Part shown: one piece after another, positions 29,282-47,023 of the stretch
Layout of the letters: each line of letters begins with the position of its first letter
How positions within the stretch are numbered: position 1 is the first letter of the stretch
Source: an uncultured Cohaesibacter sp.
Lineage (GTDB): Bacteria > Pseudomonadota > Alphaproteobacteria > Rhizobiales > Cohaesibacteraceae
Assembly: GCF_963676485.1 (NCBI RefSeq)
Contig: NZ_OY781114.1
Coordinates: 1,364,001-1,428,000 of the forward strand
Reading direction: 5' to 3'
Length of the DNA stretch: 64,000 nucleotides
Position numbers and translations under genes: made by a program
Notes under the pieces: model-generated
Seen by the model: the letters and a program-made list of their open reading frames with translations, nothing else
Told to the model about the DNA's origin: nothing
The model's database searches: none

Positions 29282-30196
29282 CTAGTCAGAAAGCAACCCG
29301 TCCACGGCCGCCCGATCGGGCACCGCTTCACTGGCGCCTTTTTTTGTGGTGGCAAGAGCCCCTGCAGCGGAAGCAAAGCGCAATGCAGCATCAAGAGGCA
29401 TGCCCTCCGATAAAGCAACAGCCAAACCGCCATTGAAGCTGTCTCCAGCCGCCACTGTATCGATCGCATCAACCTTGAAGGAGGCAATCACACCGCCCTG
29501 CCCGTCCTTACAGGCGTAAGCCAAACCTTTTGAGCCGAGCTTGACGATGACGGTCCCGGGACCGCGTGAGCAAAGGCTGCGAGCAACATCAAGCGCCTCT
29601 TCAAGACTGGTCGGCTTGACGCCAGAAAGGTCCGCGGCTTCTGTTTCATTGGGGGTAATGATGTCCGCTTCGGCCAACAGGGCATCCATGCCAGAAGATG
29701 CAATCGGGGCCGGATCAAGAATGACCGTGGCTCCGGCCGCGCGTGCCTTGAGCATGGCGGCAATGGTGGCATCCTGCGGTGTTTCCAGCTGGAACAGAGC
29801 CACCTTGCAGCTCTCAAAGCACCGGTCATCCGGACCTTCGGATGACCAGGCCATATTGGCTCCCCCAACGACGGTGATCGTATTCTGGGAGGTGGCGTCG
29901 ACATGGATGAGCGCGATACCGGAATCATGCTCCGGCATCGTGACCAGATCGCTGGTATCGACACCAAGCCCGTCTAGGCTGGCTCGCAGACTGTCACCGA
30001 AGGCATCGGCACCAACAGCGGCCACAAAGCGCACCGGCCCCTTTGCCAGTTTGGTTGCGGCAACCGCTTGATTGGCGCCCTTGCCACCGAGCCCCTTGAG
30101 GAAGCCGGTGGCATGGCTGGTAACGCCCGGTTCTGGCATCCGGTCAACAGATACCGTCAGATCCAGATTGACTGACCCGAATACCGTGATCGACAT
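29282..30196 (-). CDS. Ribokinase-like PfkB-family sugar kinase
   Basis: This 304-aa protein has PfkB signatures: GLGGKGANQAVAA near residue 36 and DTVAAGDSFNGGLAVAL near 250 with the catalytic Asp in GAGD-like AAGDS. LDPAPIASSGMDALLAEADIITPNETEA matches the ribokinase branch. It would phosphorylate ribose or another sugar or sugar acid. It is the last gene of the row with DapA-like, hydroxyacid dehydrogenase and TRAP genes (6 nt behind the DapA-like gene). In this context a 2-keto-3-deoxy sugar acid or a sugar fragment is a possible substrate, which is speculation. Confidence 0.85.
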   Translation of the reverse strand: MSITVFGSVNLDLTVSVDRMPEPGVTSHATGFLKGLGGKGANQAVAATKLAKGPVRFVAAVGADAFGDSLRASLDGLGVDTSDLVTMPEHDSGIALIHVDATSQNTITVVGGANMAWSSEGPDDRCFESCKVALFQLETPQDATIAAMLKARAAGATVILDPAPIASSGMDALLAEADIITPNETEAADLSGVKPTSLEEALDVARSLCSRGPGTVIVKLGSKGLAYACKDGQGGVIASFKVDAIDTVAAGDSFNGGLAVALSEGMPLDAALRFASAAGALATTKKGASEAVPDRAAVDGLLSD

Positions 30197-30201
30197 GGAT
30201 G

Positions 30202-31137
30202 TTATTCTCCCAGAGCCGCAATTTTCTTGCGATACAGGTCTGTGCCCTGCTCGATCCGGTCGATGATAGCGCCCAGAGCCCAGAATTTCTCTTCGATGTC
30301 AAAGGGAACCACGCGGCTGTGAATGCTGGAGAAGGTGCCAAGGCGCTGGTGATAGAGCTTAGCCATTTTCGGATAGCCCATCGGCTCAACCGTGGCAGCC
30401 AGAACGAGGAAGACGGAAAGTTCTTTACACAGCTCCGGATGCTCAGCACCATGATCCAGCACCCAGCGATAGAGATCGGGATGAATGTTGGTGAAGACAC
30501 CGCAGAAGCCAGCCGAGCCAGCCTGCATGGCCGGGGTCGCAATCGCGGCATTGGCGTTACAGATTTTCATCGGCGTGCCTTTGACCAGCTCAACCCGCCG
30601 CTTGACCGTTTCCAGATCACAGGACACATCCTTGACGATGACAAATCGGCCCGATTGGGCGCAATAGGTCACTTCGTCGTCGCTCATCAGACGGCGATAA
30701 GGAGCGGGACATTCATAAAGGCCCAAAGGCAGGTCATCGGGCAGGAAGTCCAGCAGCGCATCAAGATTGGAGCGGAAGGCATCGGCTCCCTTCTGGTCCG
30801 GATCAAGGCGATTGGTCACCAGAACGATCGCGTCAACGCCGGTATCCACCATAGCGCCGAGTTCGGTTTTCTGGTCTTCCAGAGATGCGGAAATATGCCC
30901 TGATGCCATGACAGGCACACGTCCGGCCACTTTTTCAACGGTGAAACGGGCCAGCTCGGCGCGTTCTTCAACGCTCAGGAACAGCATTTCGGATGACTGA
31001 CAGACGGCAAAGAGCGCCGTTGCACCATTTTCGAGATACCATTCAATCAGGCGCTCATAGCCTGCCCAGTCAATTTTGTTGTCGTCGGTGAACGGCGTCA
31101 GCACAACAGGGATGATACCCGAGATTTCTTTGGTCAT
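30202..31137 (-). CDS. DapA-family class I aldolase/lyase
   Basis: This 311-aa (beta/alpha)8 enzyme of the dihydrodipicolinate synthase/N-acetylneuraminate lyase family has the catalytic Tyr in GLYECPAPYRR and the Schiff-base Lys in FVIVKDVSCD. The usual GTTGE pyruvate-carboxylate loop is replaced by CQSSEML near residue 45, so substrate handling probably differs from DapA itself. Known relatives cleave or dehydrate 2-oxo acids. It sits between the sugar kinase and the hydroxyacid dehydrogenase. A lysine-biosynthesis role is unlikely in this catabolic setting. Confidence 0.82.
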   Translation of the reverse strand: MTKEISGIIPVVLTPFTDDNKIDWAGYERLIEWYLENGATALFAVCQSSEMLFLSVEERAELARFTVEKVAGRVPVMASGHISASLEDQKTELGAMVDTGVDAIVLVTNRLDPDQKGADAFRSNLDALLDFLPDDLPLGLYECPAPYRRLMSDDEVTYCAQSGRFVIVKDVSCDLETVKRRVELVKGTPMKICNANAAIATPAMQAGSAGFCGVFTNIHPDLYRWVLDHGAEHPELCKELSVFLVLAATVEPMGYPKMAKLYHQRLGTFSSIHSRVVPFDIEEKFWALGAIIDRIEQGTDLYRKKIAALGE

Positions 31138-31175
31138 TGTTTTATTCCTCTTATTAGACGTTCGGGATTTGCCGT

Positions 31176-32165
31176 TCAGACAGTCAGCGTTTCAGGATTG
31201 ACCACATAGGGGAGAAGCTCTTCGGGATTTCCGTTGAGCCAAGCCAGAATGTTGTAAACGCACCGCAGGGTCACCCGTTTCTCAGCCATCTTGTCCATGC
31301 CTGAGACATGCGGGCTGAGAATGACATTGTCACAGCTGCGCAACGGGCTGTCCGCCTGCAGCGGTTCGGTTTCGAACACATCGAGACCGGCGCCATATAC
31401 CTTGCCGGACTTGAGCGCATCGGCCAGAGCGGCTTCGTCAATCAGCGGGCCGCGAGACGTGTTGATGACAATGACACCATCCTTCATTTTGGCGAAGGTT
31501 TCTGCATTCAGCGTGTGGCGTGTTTCAGGCGTTGATGGTGCATGCACCGAAATGAGATCACTCTCGGCCAGAAGCGTATCCAGATCGCATTTCTCAACGC
31601 CTGCAGCTTCCGCCTGTTCTTCGGTCACATAAGGATCAAAGACCAGAACGCGCATGGATTGCCCCTTGAGGCGACGCGCCATGGCGCCACCAATGCGCCC
31701 CAGCCCGATAAGGCCAGCTGTGCGTTCCCATAGTCCAGGGTGGAAGCCGTCAAACATCCATGTACCGCCATGCACCATGGCATCCCGGCGAACGATACCG
31801 CATGCAAGGGACAGGGCCATTGCATGCGCATATTCAGCCACGCTCTCGTGGTTCTGGCCAAAGGCCATGGCAAGAGGGATGCCATGCTCGGTCGCTGCGG
31901 GGACATTGACCTTGTCATACCCGACACCCCAACGCGCAATCATCTTGAGATCCTTGGCAGAAGCGATCACGTCTGGTGTGTAGGGTTCGCCGCCAGCAAT
32001 GGTGGCTACTACACCGCTGGAGAGCATTTCTTTAAGAGTCGGTTCATCAGGAAGACGGCCGGTTTCGTTCACCACCACTTCATATCCTGCATCACGCAGG
32101 GGATCGAACAAGGGGCATTCATTTGTGAACTGTTCCGTCAGAACAAGAATTTTTTGCTTTGTCAT
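31176..32165 (-). CDS. D-2-hydroxyacid dehydrogenase (PGDH-like)
   Basis: This 329-aa NAD-dependent dehydrogenase has the Rossmann motif GLIGLGRIGGAMARRLKG and the catalytic triad Arg in NTSRGPLIDE, Glu in DVFETEPL and His in LSPHVSGM. It lacks the ACT domain of long SerA forms. It interconverts a D-2-hydroxyacid and a 2-oxoacid. The frame runs further upstream, but the ATG at 32165 lies 2 nt behind the dctM stop and gives the normal N-terminus, MTKQKILVLTEQF. Within the operon it may oxidise or reduce the acid brought in by the TRAP system. Confidence 0.87.
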   Translation of the reverse strand: MTKQKILVLTEQFTNECPLFDPLRDAGYEVVVNETGRLPDEPTLKEMLSSGVVATIAGGEPYTPDVIASAKDLKMIARWGVGYDKVNVPAATEHGIPLAMAFGQNHESVAEYAHAMALSLACGIVRRDAMVHGGTWMFDGFHPGLWERTAGLIGLGRIGGAMARRLKGQSMRVLVFDPYVTEEQAEAAGVEKCDLDTLLAESDLISVHAPSTPETRHTLNAETFAKMKDGVIVINTSRGPLIDEAALADALKSGKVYGAGLDVFETEPLQADSPLRSCDNVILSPHVSGMDKMAEKRVTLRCVYNILAWLNGNPEELLPYVVNPETLTV

Positions 32166-32167
32166 TG

Positions 32168-33445
32168 CTAGTTGACCATGTTGGGCAGGAACGTGACGAG
32201 ATCCGGCCAAATGATGAGAAGAGAGATGGCGACGATCTGCGCGAACAGGAAGGGCATGATCGCCTTGAACATGCGCCCGATGCTTATCTCGCCGATTTGC
32301 GCGGCGACGAAGAGGCAAATGCCGACAGGCGGTGTCATCAGGCTCAGCGTCCCCGAAAGCAGGAAGACCATGGCGAATTGCATTTCGTCGATGCCGAGAC
32401 TGCGGGAGATCGGCAGGAAGATTGGTGCCAGCAGCAAAACCTGAACGCCTGGCTCAAGGAAGAAACCTGCAACAATCAGGATGCCCAGAACGAAGAACAG
32501 GAAGATTGTCGGATCACCTGCAAAGATCGCTGTCAGAGTCCGGACCGAAGAAATGGCGCCGGTTACCGTGAGGATGTAGGACAATACCGATGCACCGGCG
32601 ATCACCAGATAAAGGCTCGCGGTCGTGCGCATGGAGCCGCGCATGCAGGAGAGGATGTCTCTCCCCGACAGGGTCTTGAGAACGAAACGCCCCAGAACCA
32701 CCGCATAGACGCAGGCAATGCCGCCAGCTTCGGTTGCCGTAAAGACGCCCGAGAGTGTACCGAACACGATGAAAAGCGGGATGGAGAAGACCAGCGCGGT
32801 TTCGAACACCAGCTGTTTGTCTGATTTGTCGACCGCCTTGATCTCGCCCTTGGGCAGCCCTTTGGTAAGAGCCGTGATCAGCACGATAACAGCGCATGCA
32901 CCACCAAGAATCAGCCCCGGCACGATACCGGCGACAAACAGCTTGATGATAGAAACCTGAGCCACCGACGCATAGACAATCATGATCACCGAGGGGGGAA
33001 TGATCGGCCCGATCATGGAACTGGCAACGGTAACAGCGGCGGAGAATTCCTTGGTGTAGCCCTGCTTGGGCATACCATTGATGAAGATCTTGCCAAGCGC
33101 TGCCGTATCGGCAATGGCCGTTCCTGAAATTCCGGCAAACAACACTGACGCCAGAATGTTGGCATAGGCTGCGCCACCGGAAACAAAGCGGGTGATTTTG
33201 GCGGCAAAGGTGATCAGCGTTTCGGTGATGCCACCCCGGTTCATCACTTCACCGGCAAAAATATAGAAGGGCGCGGCCAGAAGCGAGAAATTGTCCAGCG
33301 AGCTAAAAAAGCGCGTCGGGATAATCACCATCGGAAGGTGGGCAAACCAGGCTGCAGAAGCCCCCGTCAGCCCCAAGGCCACAGCGATGGGGGAGCCGAT
33401 AAGCACCAGAATGAAAAAGGTTGAAAAGATTGCTGCGGGGCTCAT
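32168..33445 (-). CDS. dctM: TRAP transporter large permease DctM (second system)
   Basis: This is a 425-aa polytopic permease. It has the DctM stretches APFYIFAGEVMNRGG, LFAGISGTAIADTAALG, MIGPIIPPSVIMIVYASV and the repeat half LSLMTPPVGICLFVAAQI. The AD-T/A variation of the GSSAAT loop and the low similarity to the 9.3-kb copy show a different TRAP clade. The start overlaps the DctQ stop as ATGA, and the stop is 2 nt from the dehydrogenase gene, so transport and catabolism are translationally coupled. Confidence 0.9.
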   Translation of the reverse strand: MSPAAIFSTFFILVLIGSPIAVALGLTGASAAWFAHLPMVIIPTRFFSSLDNFSLLAAPFYIFAGEVMNRGGITETLITFAAKITRFVSGGAAYANILASVLFAGISGTAIADTAALGKIFINGMPKQGYTKEFSAAVTVASSMIGPIIPPSVIMIVYASVAQVSIIKLFVAGIVPGLILGGACAVIVLITALTKGLPKGEIKAVDKSDKQLVFETALVFSIPLFIVFGTLSGVFTATEAGGIACVYAVVLGRFVLKTLSGRDILSCMRGSMRTTASLYLVIAGASVLSYILTVTGAISSVRTLTAIFAGDPTIFLFFVLGILIVAGFFLEPGVQVLLLAPIFLPISRSLGIDEMQFAMVFLLSGTLSLMTPPVGICLFVAAQIGEISIGRMFKAIMPFLFAQIVAISLLIIWPDLVTFLPNMVN

Positions 33446-33945
33446 TGCGCGGCCTCCTTATTGCCAAGCGCAGGTTGCTCGATGTAACCGGCAATCGCTT
33501 GAACCGCAATCATCAGATAGCCAATGACAACGGATGCATAGGGGATCCACATAGGCAGGCGCATGGACGGGGAAACCTGTCCCGTATCCATAAGAAATGG
33601 AATGCCGAGCACAACGACAATTGCAGCCAGCACCAATGTGGTCAGAAGAGAGAGCAAGGCCGCAATGCGCTTGATCGTATCGGACGGAATGATGTCAATC
33701 AGGTCGATCATCATCTGCTCGCCGTGACGAAAGGTTGCGCCTGCCACCAGATATACGGCCCAAACAATAGCGTAGCGCAGGGCTTCCTCACTCCAACCGA
33801 TGGGATCGGCGAGTATGTAGCGTGCCCCGACAGCCATGAAGTTGACCGTGACAATCCCGGCAAATATCGCCACCGCCAGATATTCGGTCGCGTTCGACAG
33901 CTTGGCTGTCCAACGCAGATAGCTCTGTGTCAGAGAAGATGCCAT
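33442..33945 (-). CDS. dctQ: TRAP transporter small permease DctQ (second system)
   Basis: This 167-aa protein has four hydrophobic segments, including EYLAVAIFAGIVTVNFMAVG and the family signature IGWSEEALRYAIVWAVYL. The ATG at 33945 gives the usual short cytoplasmic start; an upstream extension to 34023 lacks family features. ATGA overlap with dctM, and 97 bp behind dctP. Confidence 0.83.
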   Translation of the reverse strand: MASSLTQSYLRWTAKLSNATEYLAVAIFAGIVTVNFMAVGARYILADPIGWSEEALRYAIVWAVYLVAGATFRHGEQMMIDLIDIIPSDTIKRIAALLSLLTTLVLAAIVVVLGIPFLMDTGQVSPSMRLPMWIPYASVVIGYLMIAVQAIAGYIEQPALGNKEAAQ

Positions 33946-34042
33946 AAGAAAATTCCATTCGGATAAGGTCTGCCGGCTCACATAGAGGGATGCAAAAGGG
34001 AGGCACAAAGCCGGCAGAACCATTGGTTACAGCGAAGGGGAA

Positions 34043-35068
34043 TTATTCGCCGTAAAGTTTGGTTTCGGTTTCCGAAACAGCGTTCAGGAAGCTATCCACA
34101 TAATCCGCACCGAGTTCTTTGGAAAGGAACTCGCGAACCGGCTTCTGAGCCTTCGCACCGAATGCTTTTTTCTCGTCTGGCGAGTTCACATAAACATCAA
34201 CGCCCATATCGCTGATCCGCTGGGTATCGTAGAGATATCCCTGCCCTTTGCCAGCCAGCATGATGGTTGTGTAGAGATTAACGCCATCCAGAACAGCAGC
34301 ACGGTTTTGTGGGCTCAAGCCATCAAGGAAAGCCGGGTTGGCATAAGCAAATACGGCCGAGAAAATGTGCTCGTCCAAAGACATGTATTTGATAACTTCT
34401 GCCCAACCACCATTGATGATGGTGGATGGTGGGTTTTCGCCGCCATCAACAACGCCCTGACGGATAGCCATAGCGCTTTCCGGGAACGGAATTGGTGTCG
34501 GAGCGGCCCCGAGGCTTTTCATCAGCGCGATCATGACCGGGCTTTCCATGGAGCGCAGCTTGAGGCCTTCCACGTCTGCCGGGGTTTTGATCGGATGCTT
34601 GTTGTTCACAAAGTTACGGAAGCCATCAGCCGCAAAGCCGACAATACGAAGACCCGCTTCTTTTTCCACGTCTGCGACGAAGTCATCCATGACAGGTGAT
34701 GTATTCATGAACTCCATAGCATGGCGCGTCGAGCGGAACAGATACGGCATCGAAAATACCTGCACACCCGGATAGAAAGACGCAAGCGCCCCATCGGTTG
34801 TGGCTGTCATCTGGAAAATACCGTTACGGACGCTTTCCAGGATCTCGCGGTCGCCACCGACACCACCATGCAGCAGCTGCACATCAATGTCACCATTGGT
34901 GTGGAACTCCACATATTGCTCAAAAGCCTTCATGGCATGCGTTTCTGGATTGTCCGCTTCTGGCAGGGTTGTGGCAAAGCGCAAGGTTTCGGCCTGTGCC
35001 GACATGGAAACCATGGCTGAAAGGGCTACGGCTGCAACACCGGCGAGCAATTTAACTGAACGTTTCAT
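34043..35068 (-). CDS. dctP: TRAP solute-binding protein DctP (second system)
   Basis: This 341-aa protein has a signal peptide (LLAGVAAVALSAMVSMSAQA, cleaved before ETLRF). Family motifs are LRFATTLPEADNPE, HGGVGGDREILESVRNG, PADVEGLKLRSME (carboxylate-binding Arg) and IRQGVVDGGENPPSTI. First gene of the transporter/catabolic operon, divergent from the GntR gene, with a palindromic operator between them. The ligand is probably an organic or sugar acid; it cannot be named from sequence alone. Confidence 0.88.
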   Translation of the reverse strand: MKRSVKLLAGVAAVALSAMVSMSAQAETLRFATTLPEADNPETHAMKAFEQYVEFHTNGDIDVQLLHGGVGGDREILESVRNGIFQMTATTDGALASFYPGVQVFSMPYLFRSTRHAMEFMNTSPVMDDFVADVEKEAGLRIVGFAADGFRNFVNNKHPIKTPADVEGLKLRSMESPVMIALMKSLGAAPTPIPFPESAMAIRQGVVDGGENPPSTIINGGWAEVIKYMSLDEHIFSAVFAYANPAFLDGLSPQNRAAVLDGVNLYTTIMLAGKGQGYLYDTQRISDMGVDVYVNSPDEKKAFGAKAQKPVREFLSKELGADYVDSFLNAVSETETKLYGE

Positions 35069-35130
35069 AAGTCCTCCTTATTCCTCCAAAGCAACGGCAC
35101 CTCCTTGCGCCAGATGCTGACTTGGTGTAT

Positions 35131-35151
35131 TAACATGTATGTAACATGTTA
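35131..35151. promoter_or_regulatory. Palindromic operator in the dctP-gntR divergent region
   Basis: TAACATGT-ATGTA-ACATGTTA is a perfect 8-bp inverted repeat about 63 bp upstream of the dctP start and 169 bp before gntR. It is a good candidate for the GntR-FCD regulator encoded next door. A looser palindrome, TTACAAAAATTTGTGAA, follows at about 35174. Confidence 0.6.
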
Positions 35152-35319
35152 GCAATCTTTACTTTGACCTGTTACAAAAATTTGTGAATAGAAAGCTACC
35201 CTAAAAGCGTGCATATGGATGAGAGAGACCAGCTTGCTCCAACGGGCCATAACGCTTAATGAGGGAATAAACGCTGGATACATCAATCTGATTGCCAATG
35301 CACAAGTCAGGAATAGAGA

Positions 35320-35961
35320 ATGCTAAAGCGCGCGGCCTATGAACGCATCGTGGAATTGCTCGACCAAGGCGCCTTGAAACCGGGCACACTGGTTTCGCAA
35401 CGCGAGTTGATGGAGATGACCGGTTCGACGCTCGGTTCCATCCGGGAAGCCATTCCGCGCCTTGAAGCCGACGGTCTTCTGGAGACCATCCCCAAGCGCG
35501 GACTCATGGTACCCTCTCTTGATGTATCCTTTGTGAGGGACGCCTATGAACTGCGGTGCGTACTCGAGCTCGGCGCCATCAGCTCGGCGGTCAACCGCAT
35601 CCCCAAAGAGACCATTGCCGACTGGATCGATCAGCATGAAACCTTTCTTGCGAATATCCAGGCCAAGTCCGACCAAAATGATGCCGATGCCATGCAGAAA
35701 CTGGATTGGGACATCCATGCAACCATCATCGGCAGCATGCAGAATGCCCTGATTGCCAATGTCTATCGCGTCAATTCGGTCAAGATCCACATGGTTGTGC
35801 AATCGCGGCTCCAGGTCACGCCTTTCAATGCAGAACGCATCACGGGCGAGCATCTCGCCATTTTGCGCCCCATGCTCTTGCGCGACGTTGCCGAAACCGA
35901 AAAGGCCCTTGAACAGCACATCAACAATTCTTTGCATCTGGCTTTGGGAGGAAAGCTGTAG
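35320..35961 (+). CDS. GntR-family regulator, FCD (FadR-C) type
   Basis: This 213-aa protein has a winged HTH at residues about 5-70 (GALKPGTLVSQRELMEMTG, IREAIPRLEADGLLE, PKRGLMV). The helical FCD ligand domain carries the metal-binding Asp/His set (LDWDIHATI, EHLAILRPML, EQHINNSL). Such regulators respond to organic acids such as lactate, pyruvate or sugar acids. The ATG has AGGAATAGAGA upstream. It is divergent from the TRAP operon and probably represses it. Confidence 0.87.
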   Translation: MLKRAAYERIVELLDQGALKPGTLVSQRELMEMTGSTLGSIREAIPRLEADGLLETIPKRGLMVPSLDVSFVRDAYELRCVLELGAISSAVNRIPKETIADWIDQHETFLANIQAKSDQNDADAMQKLDWDIHATIIGSMQNALIANVYRVNSVKIHMVVQSRLQVTPFNAERITGEHLAILRPMLLRDVAETEKALEQHINNSLHLALGGKL

Positions 35962-36043: not shown

Positions 36044-36574
36044 GTGTCGGAAAACAAGTTCAAACACTCTGTCGCCGCTCACCTCAAGACAATACGGCAT
36101 CAACGAAAGCTCAGCCTTGACGATGTTGCCAAGCTGACCGGCGTATCCAAGGCGATGCTCGGCCAGATAGAAAGAGAAGAATCAAGCCCCACCATTGCCA
36201 AGCTCTGGCAAATCGCAACGGGCCTTGAAACTTCTTTTTCCGCCTTTCTGGACCAATCTTCCGACCCGGAAGAGAGCCAGACCTTTCCCAATGATCCAAA
36301 CATGAAGATGGTGCCGCTCTTCCCCTACAGCAAATCCGTGAATTTCGAGATTCACGAGATCACCCTAACCAACCATCATTGCCAGATGTCCAACCCGCAT
36401 GCGCATGGGGTCGTTGAAAGCGTGATCGTTGTGAAGGGCGAATTGGAGATCCTCGCGGATGGTCACTGGCAGACTGTTGCAGAAGGGGGAACCTTCCGCT
36501 TTTTTGCCGATCAACCCCATGGCTATCGCGCTACAAGCAAGCTGGTCGTCTTCCAGAATATTATCAGTTACTGA
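36044..36574 (+). CDS. XRE-family regulator with cupin domain
   Basis: This 176-aa protein starts with GTG. Residues about 8-65 are an XRE helix-turn-helix (RKLSLDDVAKLTGVSKAMLGQIEREESSPT), and residues about 100-175 a cupin barrel (HAHGVVESVIVVKGELEI, FFADQPHGY) that binds a small ligand. XRE-cupin proteins often control amino-acid or organic-acid catabolism. It lies between the GntR gene and the convergent GRE activase, overlapping the end of the latter by 7 bp. It may act on the inverted repeats at the GRE promoter. Confidence 0.87.
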   Translation: MSENKFKHSVAAHLKTIRHQRKLSLDDVAKLTGVSKAMLGQIEREESSPTIAKLWQIATGLETSFSAFLDQSSDPEESQTFPNDPNMKMVPLFPYSKSVNFEIHEITLTNHHCQMSNPHAHGVVESVIVVKGELEILADGHWQTVAEGGTFRFFADQPHGYRATSKLVVFQNIISY

Positions 36575-37485
36575 TAGCGCCCAATCCCGTGCCGCTCGAA
36601 AATGCTGTAGGCAGCCTCCAGCTGTGCCTCGGACGGGGTGGTAAAGGCGTGAAACGCATCCTGCATGCGAAAGGCGCTGTATTTGGCCTTGCCAAGCTCA
36701 TGATAGGGCAACAGCTCAATCAGACTACCGGGCAGATGCTTTTGCATGAACTGCGCCGTCTGGGTGAGATTTTTCTCATCCAGATTAACCTCGGCAATCA
36801 GAGGAATCCGGATCGTGATGGGGACGCCTGCGGCAAAAATCCTTTTCGCATTCTCAAGGATGGTTTCATTTCCCTGACCGGTAAATTGCCGGTGGGTTTG
36901 GCTATCCATATGCTTGATATCAAAGAAGACATGATCAATGCCAGCCATCAGGTCACTGCACTGGTCCCATTTGAAGAAGCCACAGCTTTCCACCCAGACC
37001 GAAATGCCAAGCCGTTCACAACCAGCCATCAGGCGGCGCAGAAATTGGTGCTGAACAAAAGGTTCGCCACCAGAAAAAGTCACTCCGCCGCCAGAGTGCC
37101 GAAAGAAAATCTCGTCGCGGCGGACTTGATCCAGAATGGCGTCGGCATCCATCGGATCACAGGCGAGCTGCAAGGCCTTTTGAGGGCAAGCAGCAACGCA
37201 TTGGCCACAGAAAGTGCAACGGGTAGAATCAAAATCTTGCGATGCCGGATCCAGTCCTTGCGGACAGACCGTTTGGCAAGTGTGGCAGCCTTTGCATTTG
37301 TGGGCGTGGTAGGCGAGCTTTTTGTGCTGTGTCCAGCTCTCCGGATTGGCGCACCATTGGCACCGAAGGCCGCATCCGGCCAGAAAGATCGTCGTGCGAA
37401 CCCCGTCTCCATCATGGATGGAATAATCCTGCATTTGCAGGATTATTCCAGATCTTCCCGCTTCACCCTTATCAATAACTGCCAT
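36568..37485 (-). CDS. Glycyl radical enzyme activating enzyme (radical SAM)
   Basis: This 305-aa radical SAM protein has the CX3CX2C cluster motif AGCGLRCQWCANPE near residue 30. A ferredoxin-like insert with two further [4Fe-4S] sites follows (CKGCHTCQTVCP and CTFCGQCVAACP), then TFSGGEPFVQ and FFDIKHMD. The insert is typical of activases for the dehydratase/decarboxylase GREs and is absent from PflA. It generates the glycyl radical on the upstream-encoded enzyme. The ATG at 37485 overlaps the GRE stop by 14 bases, so the pair is coupled; an upstream frame extension lies inside the GRE gene and is not real. Confidence 0.93.
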   Translation of the reverse strand: MAVIDKGEAGRSGIILQMQDYSIHDGDGVRTTIFLAGCGLRCQWCANPESWTQHKKLAYHAHKCKGCHTCQTVCPQGLDPASQDFDSTRCTFCGQCVAACPQKALQLACDPMDADAILDQVRRDEIFFRHSGGGVTFSGGEPFVQHQFLRRLMAGCERLGISVWVESCGFFKWDQCSDLMAGIDHVFFDIKHMDSQTHRQFTGQGNETILENAKRIFAAGVPITIRIPLIAEVNLDEKNLTQTAQFMQKHLPGSLIELLPYHELGKAKYSAFRMQDAFHAFTTPSEAQLEAAYSIFERHGIGRYQ

Positions 37486-39862
37486 GAGCAGACCGTGCGA
37501 TGATCGCCTCCTGCATTTCAGGCGAAAGATTGACGAACTGGGTGCTGTATCCGGCCACCCGCACCAGAAGATCCTTGTAGTCTTCCGGATTCTTCTGGGC
37601 CTTGCGCAGGGTTTCGCTGGACAGCGTGTTGAACTGCACATGGAAGGCACCAAGGGAGAAATAGGCGCGGATGATACCACCCAGATCGCGCTTGCCTTTT
37701 GGCGTGCTGACCAGATCCTCGCTCAGACGCAGATTGAGCAAAGTGCCACCCGTATGGACATCGTGGTTCATCTTGGCGCTGGAGCGCATGGCCGCAAGCG
37801 GGCTTTTCACATCGCTGCCCGCAAAGGGGGAAACACCTTCGGTGATCGGCTTGGTCGCCTTGCGTCCGCATGGGGTGGCGCCAACAATCCGACCGGTCGG
37901 GATATAGTTGGAAATGCCCATGAAAGCGGAGTTGAAGGGAGAGCCGAAATTATCCTTATAAGCACGGGTCTTGCGGTAATAATAGTTGGCCAGATCGCGC
38001 GCGATGGCGTCGACATAATCGTCATCATTGCCATATTTCACCACGGCCTGCGCCTTGGTGCGCAAAGCGTCATAGCCTTCCCAGTCCGCATTCATGGCAG
38101 CATCCAGCTCAACGAGCGTTGTCACCTTGTCTTCAAAGACCAGCTTCTTGATGACCGCTAGCGAATTGGCAACCACCGCAAGGCCGATCCCTGTCAGAAC
38201 AGGCCCGACATTGTATTTGGCGCCTCCGCGGGAGAGGTCCTTGCCTTCTTCCAGACAATGGCCAATGCAGGTGGAAAGGAACGGACGCGGTACCATTTCC
38301 GAATGAAGCTTCTGGGCAATGACAGTGGAGACCACCGAATGGTGGATCAGATTGCCCACTTGCTCAAAAGTGGCATCCTCGATCTCCTGATAGCTGGAAT
38401 AATCTGCCAGAGGTTTGGCATCCAGCCCCATCTTCTCGCCAGTAAGGCGGCTCTTGCCCTCATTGAGGGCATATTCCATGGCGGCGGCGAAATTGACATT
38501 GACCGCACTGGTCCACTGCCCCGTCTGGCGGAAATGAGGCACCACACAGCCGCAATTGTTCCAGTCGCGCGCATCTTCAGGCTCGTAGCCTGCTTGCAGC
38601 AGCATCTGCGTTCCGGCCTGATCGTTGTGAATGGCAGGAAAGCCAGTGCCCTTGCTGACCAGATCGGACACAGCATAAAGAAATTCCGGAGGGCAATCCG
38701 ATTGCACGCGCACGCTGAGCCCTGGCTGGTGGGTGCGCACCTCGTCGGTCGCTTCAAGGCAGAGATATGTCAACTCGTTGGTCGCGTCGCTGCCATCGCG
38801 TTTTTTGCCCCCAACCGTCAGGTTCTGAAACTGGTTATAGCCTGCGAAATAGCCTGTGGTGTTTTCTGAAATGGTCCAGACCCATTCGGAATATTTCAGC
38901 CACAGGGCATGGATCAACTCCTTCGCGCCAGCCTTGTCCAAAGCGCCCTTGTCCATGTCGGCCGCATAATAGGGATACATGAACTGGTCATAACGGCCCG
39001 GATTGAGCGCCAAAGGATTCTCGGTGATAATACCGCCCAACTGGACAAACCAGATGAATTGCGTGGCCTCATGGAAGCTTTGCGGCGGGCATTCAGGCAC
39101 ACGGCGGCACACACGGGCAATCTCTTCCAGCTCAGCCTTGCGGGTGGCGTCGGCCTCATCGGCTGCCATGCTCTCAGCCAAATCAGCATAGCGATTAGCC
39201 AACAGGATGATGGCCTTGGCGCTCAGGATGGTTGCCTGATAATAGTGGATCCGGTCGATATCTTCGGCATTGAGGTAATCAAGCGCTGCGAGCTTTTCCT
39301 CGGCCTCCTTCAGGATACCGCCATAGCCCTTGACGAACAGATGCCCTTCATAATCGGGCGTGATTTCACCCACCGCCTGCCGCCATTTGGAATCATTGTC
39401 GATGATGCCCGTATCAACGGCAATTCTGGCGGTCTCCTCTGGCAAAGCAGCAAGGAAATGCTCTTCCAGAGACTTACCATGCCAATAGGGGAAAATCTCC
39501 GCCCGGACGACGTCGCATTGGTCCGGTGTGATCTGATAGGGGTCCTGCGGGCGCGTAGGGAAAGTGTCCATTTCCTTGTCGACCCACTGCCATGAATATT
39601 CCGGCGTGAGGATGCCTGTCCTGCGAAATTTGCCCGCGGTCCCGACAATCAGTTCATCTTCAAAAATACGCACCTGGAATTGAGCGCAAAAATCATAGAA
39701 TGCCTGAGCACGGCGCAGAATGATCGGCTTGCCTTCGGTCTTCTTGTGCGACCCCGTATAGATCTTGGCGCGCTGATAACAGATAGAGGGCTTGGTATTG
39801 ACGTAACTCTGCCGCAGCCGCTCTATGCGATCCGAAACAGGTTTCATGGTTTTCAGCATCAT
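37472..39862 (-). CDS. Glycyl radical enzyme of unassigned substrate
   Basis: This 796-aa PFL-superfamily protein has a PFL domain from about residue 10 to 660 and the C-terminal glycyl radical domain with RVAGYSTQFVNLS (Gly771, codon 37550-37552). The active-site loop reads NNCGCVVPHF: the thiyl Cys is Cys439, with a second Cys437 two residues earlier. Dehydratase, choline and isethionate lyase members have GC-x-E here; this enzyme has Val441 in place of that Glu. Pyruvate formate-lyase has adjacent CC, which is also absent. Its function is therefore open. The oxygen-sensitive radical implies anaerobic use. It is coupled to its activase and sits next to the TRAP/aldolase operon. Confidence 0.92.
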   Translation of the reverse strand: MMLKTMKPVSDRIERLRQSYVNTKPSICYQRAKIYTGSHKKTEGKPIILRRAQAFYDFCAQFQVRIFEDELIVGTAGKFRRTGILTPEYSWQWVDKEMDTFPTRPQDPYQITPDQCDVVRAEIFPYWHGKSLEEHFLAALPEETARIAVDTGIIDNDSKWRQAVGEITPDYEGHLFVKGYGGILKEAEEKLAALDYLNAEDIDRIHYYQATILSAKAIILLANRYADLAESMAADEADATRKAELEEIARVCRRVPECPPQSFHEATQFIWFVQLGGIITENPLALNPGRYDQFMYPYYAADMDKGALDKAGAKELIHALWLKYSEWVWTISENTTGYFAGYNQFQNLTVGGKKRDGSDATNELTYLCLEATDEVRTHQPGLSVRVQSDCPPEFLYAVSDLVSKGTGFPAIHNDQAGTQMLLQAGYEPEDARDWNNCGCVVPHFRQTGQWTSAVNVNFAAAMEYALNEGKSRLTGEKMGLDAKPLADYSSYQEIEDATFEQVGNLIHHSVVSTVIAQKLHSEMVPRPFLSTCIGHCLEEGKDLSRGGAKYNVGPVLTGIGLAVVANSLAVIKKLVFEDKVTTLVELDAAMNADWEGYDALRTKAQAVVKYGNDDDYVDAIARDLANYYYRKTRAYKDNFGSPFNSAFMGISNYIPTGRIVGATPCGRKATKPITEGVSPFAGSDVKSPLAAMRSSAKMNHDVHTGGTLLNLRLSEDLVSTPKGKRDLGGIIRAYFSLGAFHVQFNTLSSETLRKAQKNPEDYKDLLVRVAGYSTQFVNLSPEMQEAIIARSAHGSY

Positions 39863-39941: not shown

Positions 39942-39979
39942 ATGTGCGTAGTGGCACATCTTGTGCGCAATAACGCACA
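39942..39979. promoter_or_regulatory. Tandem inverted repeats at the GRE promoter
   Basis: ATGTGC-N6-GCACAT (39942-39959) and TGTGCG-N6-CGCACA (39962-39979) are perfect inverted repeats whose centres are exactly 20 bp apart, on one face of the helix. They lie at and just downstream of the predicted transcription start of the GRE gene, the position of a repressor operator. The XRE-cupin protein is a candidate ligand-responsive binder. Confidence 0.6.
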
Positions 39980-44605: not shown

Positions 44606-47023
44606 ATGACAGATCTATCCCCTGAAACGAGACGAAACATGCACAGCCCCCATTTAAAGACAATCGAGCAGCGCCTTCTGTGGCTGTCACACTGGATGAT
44701 TCACAATGCAAACCATATCCGCCCCAAAGCGGATGGCATCAAGGTCGGCGGCCATCAAGCCAGCTCGGCTTCTATGGTTTCCATCATGACCGCGCTCTAT
44801 TTCTCTGCCTTGCGACCGGAAGACCGCGTTGCCGTCAAGCCGCATGCCTCGCCCATTTTCCATGCAATGCAATATCTGATAGGCAACCAGACCCGGGAGA
44901 AGATGGAGAATTTCCGTGGCTTCGGCGGGGTCCAGTCCTACCCTTCCCGCACCAAGGACATTGATGATGTGGATTTCTCCACCGGATCGGTGGGTTTGGG
45001 CGTTGCCATCACCTCCTTTGCCTCGCTCATTCAGGACTATATCAAAGCCAAGAGCTGGGGTGGTGACCAGACCCTTGGCCGCATGGTGGCTCTGGTGGGC
45101 GATGCGGAGCTGGATGAAGGCAACATCTATGAATGCCTGCAGGAAGGCTGGAAAAATGATCTGAGAAACTGCTGGTGGATCATCGATTACAACCGCCAGT
45201 CCCTGGACGGGATCGTTCGCGAAGGGCTTTTCGAGCGGGTCGAGAAGATCTTCGATGCCTTCGGCTGGGATGTTGTTCGGGTCAAATATGGCAAATTGCA
45301 GCGTGAAGCCTTTGAAGAACCCGGCGGCGACAAGCTCAAGGCCTGGATCGATGCCTGCCCCAATCAGGATTATTCGGCCCTCACCTTCATGGGCGGCGCC
45401 GTCTGGCGCAAGCGGCTGATGGATGATCTTGGCGATCAGGGTGATGTGACCGCGCTCATCGAACGGCGCAGTGATGATGAACTGGCAGCCCTGATGGAAA
45501 ATCTTGGTGGCAACTGCGTCACCACCATGGCCGATGTCTTTGCCTCTATCGATCATGACCGCCCGACCTGCTTCCTTGCCTACACGGTCAAGGGCTGGGG
45601 CACGCCAATTGCCGGACACAAGGACAATCACGGCGGCCTGATGAACCCGACCCAGATGGAAGCATGGCAGAACCATATGGGCGTTGCCAAGGGAGAGGAA
45701 TGGGAGCCCTTCGCCACGGTAAACGACACCGAGGCACTCAAGGCATTTCTCAATGAGGTTCCGTTCTTTTCAAAGGGCACACGCCGCTATAATGATCACA
45801 AGCTGGCTGTTCCAGCCATCGAGATGGACAGCGCCCGCACGCTTTCCACGCAGGCAGCGTTTGGCAAGATCCTTGATACGCTCTCCAAGGGTGACAGCGA
45901 ATTGGCAGCCCGGATCGTGACCACCTCCCCGGATGTGACAGGCACGACCAATCTTGGCCCATGGGTCAACCGGCGCAAACTTTTCGCACGCACCGCGCAA
46001 AAGGATTCTTTCATCGAACACCGCATTCCCTCAACGGCGAAATGGGTGTTCGACCCGGAAGGACAGCATATCGAACTGGGCATCGCAGAGATGAACCTGT
46101 TTCTGTTGCTCGGCGCAGCAGGGCTTTCCCATTCACTGTTTGGCAAGCGGCTGATCCCTATCGGCACGGTTTACGATCCCTTTGTCTGCCGCGGCCTCGA
46201 TGCACTCAACTATGCCTGCTATCAGGATGCGCGCTTCATGATTGTCGGCACCCCTTCCGGCGTAACGCTGGCTCCCGAAGGGGGGGCACACCAATCTGTC
46301 GGAACACCCCTCATCGGCATGAGCCAAGATGGACTGGCAGCGTTCGAACCAGCCTTTGCCGATGAGTTGGCCGTTATCATGGCATGGGCCTTTGACTATA
46401 TGCAGCGCGATGGTGAGGGCGATCCGGATGAACGCACATGGCTGCGGGATGAGACCGGCGGCTCGGTCTATCTGCGCCTGACGACCAACCCGATCGAACG
46501 ACCGGGCAAGCGGGCGGACGATGCCTTCCGGCAAGGGGCAATTGATGGCGGCTACTGGCTGCGCAAGCCGGGTCCCAATTGCGAGATTGTCATTGCCTAT
46601 CAGGGGGCTGTGGCCTCTGAAGCGATCAAGGCGGCTGGCGCAATCGCAGAAGCCCGCCGCGATATCGGCGTACTGGCGGTCACCTCGGCGGACCGGCTGA
46701 ATGCGGGCTGGACAGCGGCTCAGCGAGCGCGTTCGCGCGGAAATGAGAAGGCCATCTCCCATGTGGAGCATCTGATGGGCGATCTGCCTGAGCATTGCAA
46801 GATCGTAACGGTCATCGACGGTCACCCGGCCACATTGGCCTGGCTTGGAGGCGTTGCGGGCCATCGCACCATCTCGCTTGGTATCGAGCATTTCGGCCAG
46901 ACCGGCACCATCGGCGATCTTTATCACCACCATGGCATTGATGCCGCTTCGATCATTGAAAAGGTTGAAGGACTGTCTGCGGGTCGGCGCGTCAAGGGGA
47001 GCATCTCCAGTTCACGGCTCTGA
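44606..47023 (+). CDS. AceE/MdeB-like homodimeric 2-oxoacid dehydrogenase E1 (transketolase-like)
   Basis: This 805-aa thiamine-diphosphate enzyme has an N-terminal TPP domain (HASPIFHAMQYL, FSTGSVGLGVAITSFA, and the TPP/Mg motif GDAELDEGNIYE ending in WIIDYNRQ), a central pyrimidine domain (HIELGIAEMNLFLLLGAAGL) and a transketolase C-terminal domain. It is shorter than AceE (about 887 aa). No lipoyl E2 or E3 gene is adjacent, so partners must be elsewhere or the enzyme acts alone. With the divergent Lrp gene it resembles MdeB, which handles 2-oxobutyrate from methionine breakdown. The reaction is not proven. Confidence 0.82.
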   Translation: MTDLSPETRRNMHSPHLKTIEQRLLWLSHWMIHNANHIRPKADGIKVGGHQASSASMVSIMTALYFSALRPEDRVAVKPHASPIFHAMQYLIGNQTREKMENFRGFGGVQSYPSRTKDIDDVDFSTGSVGLGVAITSFASLIQDYIKAKSWGGDQTLGRMVALVGDAELDEGNIYECLQEGWKNDLRNCWWIIDYNRQSLDGIVREGLFERVEKIFDAFGWDVVRVKYGKLQREAFEEPGGDKLKAWIDACPNQDYSALTFMGGAVWRKRLMDDLGDQGDVTALIERRSDDELAALMENLGGNCVTTMADVFASIDHDRPTCFLAYTVKGWGTPIAGHKDNHGGLMNPTQMEAWQNHMGVAKGEEWEPFATVNDTEALKAFLNEVPFFSKGTRRYNDHKLAVPAIEMDSARTLSTQAAFGKILDTLSKGDSELAARIVTTSPDVTGTTNLGPWVNRRKLFARTAQKDSFIEHRIPSTAKWVFDPEGQHIELGIAEMNLFLLLGAAGLSHSLFGKRLIPIGTVYDPFVCRGLDALNYACYQDARFMIVGTPSGVTLAPEGGAHQSVGTPLIGMSQDGLAAFEPAFADELAVIMAWAFDYMQRDGEGDPDERTWLRDETGGSVYLRLTTNPIERPGKRADDAFRQGAIDGGYWLRKPGPNCEIVIAYQGAVASEAIKAAGAIAEARRDIGVLAVTSADRLNAGWTAAQRARSRGNEKAISHVEHLMGDLPEHCKIVTVIDGHPATLAWLGGVAGHRTISLGIEHFGQTGTIGDLYHHHGIDAASIIEKVEGLSAGRRVKGSISSSRL

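What the first reader, a model, noticed from the sequence alone, without database searches (positions are those of the whole stretch)
37472..39862. Glycyl radical enzyme whose active site fits none of the common GRE types
The sequence shows the radical Gly771 and thiyl Cys439 in NNCGCVVPHF. In dehydratase, C-N lyase and C-S lyase GREs the Cys is followed by x-Glu (general base); here it is Val441. The CC pair of pyruvate formate-lyase is also absent, while an extra Cys437 and a His443 are present. By inference the enzyme does different chemistry or uses a different base, so it may define an unassigned GRE class.
Basis: partly seen in the sequence, partly recalled or inferred. Interest (0 to 1): 0.8.

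Follow-up and report, generated by a model that had tools for sequence, protein, structure and literature searches.

The report
Radical enzyme missing its usual base
A glycyl radical enzyme in the marine bacterium Cohaesibacter belongs to an uncharacterised family, found mainly in clostridia, in which valine replaces a catalytic glutamate kept by its closest relatives, so it probably carries out an unrecorded oxygen-free reaction on a small amino-acid-like molecule.

Summary
In detail: the minus-strand gene at 37472-39862 encodes a 796-aa glycyl radical enzyme (GRE) with Gly771, Cys439, Cys437, His443, and Val441 where GRE eliminases carry the CxE glutamate. It is no private mutation: CGCVVPH is invariant in all 79 members aligned (60-100% identity), mostly Clostridia. 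The family is a fully supported clade near choline TMA-lyase (CutC) and the N-methyl-4-hydroxyproline dehydratases, passes no NCBIfam equivalog cut-off, and no solved member was found. The extra Cys is not unique: C-G-C also occurs in the N-methyl-hydroxyproline dehydratases and an HplG orthologue. Of the HypD and CutC acid/base positions mapped by alignment, only Glu166 stays acidic; Lys159 and Asn287 are shared with the N-methyl-hydroxyproline enzymes, Phe339 and Phe345 with CutC. The module is self-contained: GRE, activase, often an XRE-cupin or GntR regulator. Best reading: a new GRE lyase class for a small zwitterionic, probably N-methylated or betaine-type amino acid lacking the hydroxyl that CxE normally holds. 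Family novelty is well supported; substrate and reaction are inference.

The parts
37472..39862 (-). Glycyl radical enzyme, 796 aa as called (true start probably M2 or M6)
38534..38563 (-). Cys loop W434-N-N-C437-G-C439-V-V441-P-H443: thiyl Cys439, Val441 in place of the CxE glutamate
37547..37561 (-). Glycyl radical motif R768-V-A-G771-Y
   Evidence: Pfam Gly_radical
39365..39388 (-). Pocket segment K159-W-R161-QAVG-E166; Glu166 falls in the CutC-Asp216 / HypD-His160 / IslA-Gln193 column
   Evidence: alignment; equivalence of those three residues from PMC8473560 passages
36568..37485 (-). GRE activase (radical SAM, CxxxCxxC plus ferredoxin-type 4Fe-4S motifs); likely start 37485 overlaps the end of the GRE gene by 14 bases. 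The longer mechanical ORF runs to 37680
   Evidence: TIGR02494 319.7 bits over cut-off 174.35; Pfam Radical_SAM and Fer4; start read; tblastn relative in 80 of 80 loci
36044..36574 (+). XRE-cupin transcriptional regulator, convergent with the activase
   Evidence: Pfam HTH_3 and Cupin_2; tblastn relative in 49 of 80 loci; beside the module in 5 of 5 other Cohaesibacter regions in which that side was held (L044, L045, L196, L197, L198), not in the Oleispirillum (L047) or Telmatospirillum (L118) loci
39943..39979 (.). Two operator-like palindromes upstream of the GRE: TGTGCGTAGTGGCACA (39943-39958) and TGTGCGCAATAACGCACA (39962-39979)
   Evidence: 39962-39979 is the only perfect TGTGCGN6CGCACA site in the own genome, while sites with one mismatch (8 more) are near the control count of 6; a site of this form in 4 of 8 Cohaesibacter genomes carrying the gene. 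Function inferred

Best explanation
A distinct, unassigned class of glycyl radical lyase. Shown: the motifs of the canonical radical machinery (activase gene, Gly771, Cys439), a GRE-eliminase fold (predicted), a monophyletic family with invariant loss of the CxE glutamate, and a self-contained gene module. Inferred: the activase makes the Gly771 radical, which passes to Cys439; Cys439 takes a hydrogen from a small zwitterionic amino-acid-like substrate, most likely N-methylated or betaine-type. The carboxylate is held by Lys159 (perhaps with Arg161) and Asn287, the amine by Phe339, Phe345 and Glu166. Because Val441 replaces the residue that holds a hydroxyl in other eliminases, the substrate probably lacks that hydroxyl, Glu166 does any acid/base work on the amine, and the bond broken is C-N or C to another leaving group that needs no proton from CxE. 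The product would enter central metabolism without dedicated enzymes; the local XRE-cupin or GntR protein would sense substrate or product.
For: K159, R161, E166, L284, N287, F339, F345, H378, C437, V441, H443 and T451 are 79 of 79, and N455 78 of 79, in the family. The tree gives the clade 100/100, joined to CutC at 89/88 and then to the N-methyl-4-hydroxyproline dehydratases at 92/87; both neighbours act on N-methylated amines by their entry titles. K159, E166, N287, W434 and C437 are shared with L162 (8id1 orthologue) and 8iof, F339 and F345 with CutC. HypD acid/base positions E436, H160 and D278 become V441, E166 and L284. No NCBIfam equivalog passes: CutC 717 of 1050 bits, HpsG 625 of 1000, HypD 560 of 1100, PFL 120 of 994; the broad subfamily TIGR01774 also just fails, 669 of 678. 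An activase relative is in 80 of 80 loci. Strong purifying selection.
Against: No substrate or activity data. Loops that matter have model confidence under pLDDT 50 (330-343, which holds Phe339; 440-443; 650-667; 671-682), and pocket equivalences rest on alignment, not coordinates; the D278 column differs between my two alignments (Trp neighbour, Asp). E-to-Q at CxE abolishes activity in HypD and IslA, so living without it is a large step. The two joins to neighbours have moderate support. MTTB methyltransferases, a hallmark of some quaternary-amine pathways (recalled), were found in only 2 of 34 carrier genomes (and 2 of 8 non-carriers). ProVWX beside the gene is present in only 4 of 8 Cohaesibacter orthologues, and a ProX relative in only 1 of 80 loci, itself a Cohaesibacter.
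Confidence: 0.4

Rival explanations
1. A conventional hydroxyl-directed eliminase whose base has moved from CxE to Glu166 or His443, acting on a hydroxy-betaine or hydroxy amino acid; carnitine giving trimethylamine plus acetoacetate is one example that would need no dedicated downstream enzyme.
For: The sister clades use a hydroxyl (CutC, N-methyl-hydroxyproline dehydratases; titles). His443 and Glu166 are invariant. Self-contained module.
Against: Glu166 is already present beside CxE in L162 and 8iof, so it is not a compensating gain. The position of His443 is not named as catalytic in the passages read. Among the neighbours that I annotated no carnitine-specific gene passed its cut-off; one L081 CoA-transferase matched the L-carnitine model at 141 of 413 bits.
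Confidence: 0.2
2. Non-eliminase chemistry (C-C cleavage, decarboxylation, isomerisation or radical addition), with Cys437 as a second thiol.
For: PFL-type GREs also lack CxE (7 of 7 sampled have Ser there); Cys437 is invariant.
Against: The clade sits among eliminases. Cys437 is shared with 8id1, 8iof and an HplG orthologue, dehydratases or a C-N lyase by title, so it is no evidence of PFL-like chemistry. No accessory subunit lies beside the gene in the window.
Confidence: 0.2
3. A known activity (choline or N-methyl-hydroxyproline) retained with a substituted active site.
For: 37-40% identity to CutC and the same fold.
Against: Far below the CutC cut-off; CutC Glu491, Tyr208 and Tyr506 columns are Val441, Ser158 and Asn455. 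A ProC gene lies beside the 8id1 orthologue in Terrisporobacter but in 0 of 80 family loci. That same Terrisporobacter genome carries a family member (L084), the 8id1 orthologue (L162) and a HypD-clade GRE (L129), so they are unlikely to be interchangeable.
Confidence: 0.12
4. An inactive or regulatory GRE relic.
For: A catalytic glutamate is lost; a few members have split reading frames (L066, L092, and L187 from genome G994).
Against: Activase relative in 80 of 80 loci, intact radical motif 79 of 79, dN/dS 0.02-0.05 in 5 pairs, spread over many genera.
Confidence: 0.03

Closest known systems
Choline trimethylamine-lyase, CutC (5fau, 5a0u)
   Different: No CxE; Tyr208 column Ser158, Tyr506 column Asn455, Thr334 column Leu284; 717 bits against a cut-off of 1050
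N-methyl-cis-4-hydroxyproline dehydratases (8id1, L form; 8iof, D form)
   Same: W-x-x-C-G-C, Lys159 and Glu166 positions, Asn287
   Different: They keep CxE and have Asp or Glu at column 455; only 563 and 513 bits to the query; the 8id1 orthologue lies beside ProC, 0 of 80 family loci do
HypD, trans-4-hydroxy-L-proline dehydratase (6vxc)
   Different: Glu436, Asp278, His160 and Ser334 columns are Val, Leu, Glu and Phe; 560 of 1100 bits
HplG, hydroxyproline C-N cleaving GRE (7vua)
   Same: C-G-C in the Cys loop (orthologue L165)
   Different: The orthologue keeps CxE; HplG scores 373 bits to the query
Pyruvate formate-lyase
   Same: Radical Gly and thiyl Cys, no CxE
   Different: CC pair absent; 120 of 994 bits

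Membership tests
Glycyl radical enzyme superfamily | C-terminal RVxG[FWY] radical motif and mid-protein thiyl Cys | tested here: met
   RVAG771Y and Cys439
Glycyl radical enzyme superfamily | Dedicated radical SAM activase encoded nearby | tested here: met
   activase relative in 80 of 80 loci
Glycyl radical enzyme superfamily | A glycyl radical forms in the protein | not testable with these tools
   needs EPR
GRE eliminase class | CxE motif in the Cys loop (PMC8473560 and PMC7077986 passages) | tested here: not met
   Val441 in 79 of 79
GRE eliminase class | Fold and placement among eliminases | tested here: met
   neighbour joins 89/88 and 92/87
Choline TMA-lyase (CutC) | TIGR04394 score over 1050 bits | tested here: not met
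   716.9 bits
Choline TMA-lyase (CutC) | Glu491, Tyr208 and Tyr506 pocket | tested here: not met
   Val441, Ser158, Asn455
N-methyl-4-hydroxyproline dehydratase | CxE together with the Lys and Glu of the beta1 segment | tested here: not met
   Lys159 and Glu166 present, CxE absent
N-methyl-4-hydroxyproline dehydratase | Turnover of N-methyl-4-hydroxyproline | not testable with these tools
   needs enzyme assay
HypD | NF043068 score over 1100 bits | tested here: not met
   559.6 bits
Pyruvate formate-lyase | Adjacent Cys-Cys pair; TIGR01255 over 994 bits | tested here: not met
   C-G-C, not CC; 120.5 bits
Aminoacyl radical enzymes (AARE) | Ala, Ser or Thr in place of the radical Gly (PMC11528403 passages) | tested here: not met
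   Gly771 in 79 of 79

The most novel reading that the evidence does not exclude
The first GRE class that cleaves a bond in a hydroxyl-free zwitterion (a betaine or N-methyl amino acid) with a single carboxylate, Glu166, and no CxE base, giving clostridia and a few alphaproteobacteria an unrecorded anaerobic route into such compounds.
Probability: 0.3. Interest if true: 0.85.

Novelty: new variant of a known kind. Interest (0 to 1): 0.6.

Why it matters
[quoted passage not shown] A conserved family that lives without it, one of three PFL-like GRE genes in its host and present in named gut and sediment anaerobes, is a ready test of how far GRE chemistry can move from hydroxyl-directed elimination, and may fill an unassigned step in anaerobic amino-acid or betaine metabolism. 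The sister enzymes narrow the substrate list enough for a small screen.

Tried and rejected
Genome-neighbour clues to the substrate. ProVWX beside the gene: 4 of 8 Cohaesibacter orthologues, ProX relative in 1 of 80 loci; rejected as a reliable clue. ProC: 0 of 80 loci. Few occurrences, not used as evidence: formimidoylglutamase (L108, L119), methylaspartate ammonia-lyase in what looks like a glutamate mutase operon (L113), enolase-superfamily protein with CoA-transferase (L081), D-serine ammonia-lyase (L087), branched-chain amino-acid-type ABC transporter (L048, L052, L074). MTTB methyltransferases: 4 of 42 genomes, 2 of them among 34 carriers (G834, G845) and 2 among 8 non-carriers of the genus. 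FNR box: matches to TTGATN4ATCAA are about chance in the window (44 found, 35 expected).

Literature: nine searches showed no paper naming this CVV family in their listings; most matches were not opened. I read passages only of PMC11528403, PMC8473560, PMC7077986 and PMC8473912. The paper behind 8id1 and 8iof was not seen, only PDB titles. PMC13319378, listed as holding both N-methyl-4-hydroxyproline and glycyl radical once each, was not opened.

Corrections to my notes: the second own-genome GRE (L001) is not CutC-like; it passes the broad diol/glycerol-dehydratase-family model TIGR01774 and lies outside the CutC clade. '8/17' in a note counts the own genome among the eight: it is 8 of 18 genomes of the genus.

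Limits: only the best 80 of 179 confirmed relatives were returned, 49 of them at least 20 kb long. Neighbour genes were called by a simple longest-ORF rule.

Full report
What is there. The gene is on the minus strand, 37472-39862, 796 codons. It carries the PFL-like and glycine-radical domains. Next to it, overlapping by 14 bases, lies a radical SAM activase with ferredoxin-type 4Fe-4S motifs, and beyond that, convergent, an XRE-cupin regulator. Two palindromes upstream of the GRE look like operators; one is the only perfect TGTGCGN6CGCACA site in the 5.08-Mb genome, although sites with one mismatch are near control level, and a site of this form is present in 4 of 8 genomes of the genus that carry the gene. 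The genus is Cohaesibacter: G010, of the same genus, has its match on a contig of the same length and at the same place as Cohaesibacter marisflavi in the named collection.

Who else has it. Eight of 18 genomes of the genus, own genome included, have a gene of 92% identity or more. At 1e-100 no other genome among 385 drawn from the class had a match, and among 398 drawn from the phylum nothing beyond the own genome exceeded 40% identity. The named collection gave 179 confirmed relatives, of which the best 80 (60-97% identity) were returned. By record title these are mostly Clostridia (Anaerotignum, Sedimentibacter, Dethiosulfatibacter, Acidaminobacter, Clostridioides, Terrisporobacter; many are amino-acid fermenters, as I recall), with Desulforamulus and Desulfotruncus, a few other phyla, and five alphaproteobacterial loci (L044-L047, L118). 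In a draw of 391 genomes from the class of Dethiosulfatibacter, 5 had a match at 1e-185, one of them the centre of the draw, a known carrier. Peptoclostridium acidaminophilum and Acetoanaerobium noterae also carry it; in the former the record calls it only 'glycyl radical protein'. In both trees the Cohaesibacter and Oleispirillum genes sit inside the family next to Anaerotignum, which suggests horizontal transfer.

Is the motif meaningful. CGCVVPH is invariant in 79 of 79 aligned members, and a member of 55-56% identity keeps it (L185). In a 92-row alignment 56 of 65 sequences outside the family have Glu at column 441, 7 PFL-type have Ser and 2 have Gly. dN/dS is 0.02-0.05 in 5 pairs.

The pocket. 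[quoted passage not shown] the alignment puts Glu166 there. PMC7077986 (passages) reports that E436Q, H160Q and D278N lack HypD activity and that CxE glutamates contact a substrate hydroxyl. In the family these columns are Val441, Glu166 and Leu284 (the Asp278 column is shifted by one in the alignment). CutC Tyr208 and Tyr506 become Ser158 and Asn455, while Phe389 and Phe395 remain as Phe339 and Phe345. Lys159, Glu166 and Asn287 recur in L162 and 8iof. Reading, marked as inference: an amine held by Phe339, Phe345 and Glu166, a carboxylate held by Lys159 and Asn287, and no hydroxyl where CxE would be. The model (pLDDT 79.7, pTM 0.86) supports the fold but not side-chain detail: 330-343, 440-443, 650-667 and 671-682 are under pLDDT 50.

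Context. An activase relative is in 80 of 80 loci (71 of 80 by the stricter gene call); an XRE-cupin relative in 49 of 80, and an XRE-cupin or GntR relative in 52 of 80. No other gene family recurred in more than 14 of 80 loci by the gene clustering. Apparent links to M20 peptidases and to ProVWX did not stand up. The product is therefore probably usable by housekeeping enzymes (inference).

Known or not. The protein is a member of the GRE superfamily by every sequence test made and resembles a GRE eliminase in fold and radical motifs, but it fails the CxE test and every NCBIfam equivalog matched. I found no paper describing the family in the listings of nine searches (see Tried and rejected), in a library that lacks most subscription journals. 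I file it as a new variant of a known kind: a distinct, unassigned GRE class.

Noticed in passing
L168 (Dethiosulfatibacter genome G834:C38:223800-227000): A GRE homologue with RVASY, Ser in place of the radical Gly, like the aminoacyl radical enzymes of PMC11528403 (passages), in a cultured and named genus.
   Followed up: no
L172 (Telmatospirillum genome G841) and L015 (G049): GREs with CVGT in place of CVEP, also lacking CxE; for L172 the nearest solved chain is glycerol dehydratase at 411 bits, so it looks unassigned too.
   Followed up: partly
L001 1417-4020 (own genome C1:4076211): A second GRE of the same genome, 867 aa, passing TIGR01774, with an extra stretch of roughly 70-80 residues in its C-terminal half, perhaps an encapsulation or targeting insert.
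   Followed up: no
L003 (own genome C1:221380): A third GRE, PFL type with ACCVS, followed by a radical SAM activase-like ORF.
   Followed up: no
L184 12422-14784 (Tissierella genome G847): A second GRE-like gene in broken frames next to the HplG orthologue and OrtA/OrtB ornithine genes; left as it is.
   Followed up: no
window 29282-35961: TRAP transporter (DctP and DctM over cut-off), a DapA-like ORF (by eye; no NCBIfam match at 1e-30), a 2-hydroxyacid-dehydrogenase-like and a ribokinase-like protein (both under cut-off) and a GntR/FCD regulator; the GntR lies beside the GRE module in 5 of 5 other Cohaesibacter regions held.
   Followed up: partly
window 44606-47023: 805-aa AceE/transketolase-like protein far below the pyruvate dehydrogenase cut-off (169 of 860 bits), beside an ORF that looks like an Lrp/AsnC regulator by eye.
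   Followed up: no
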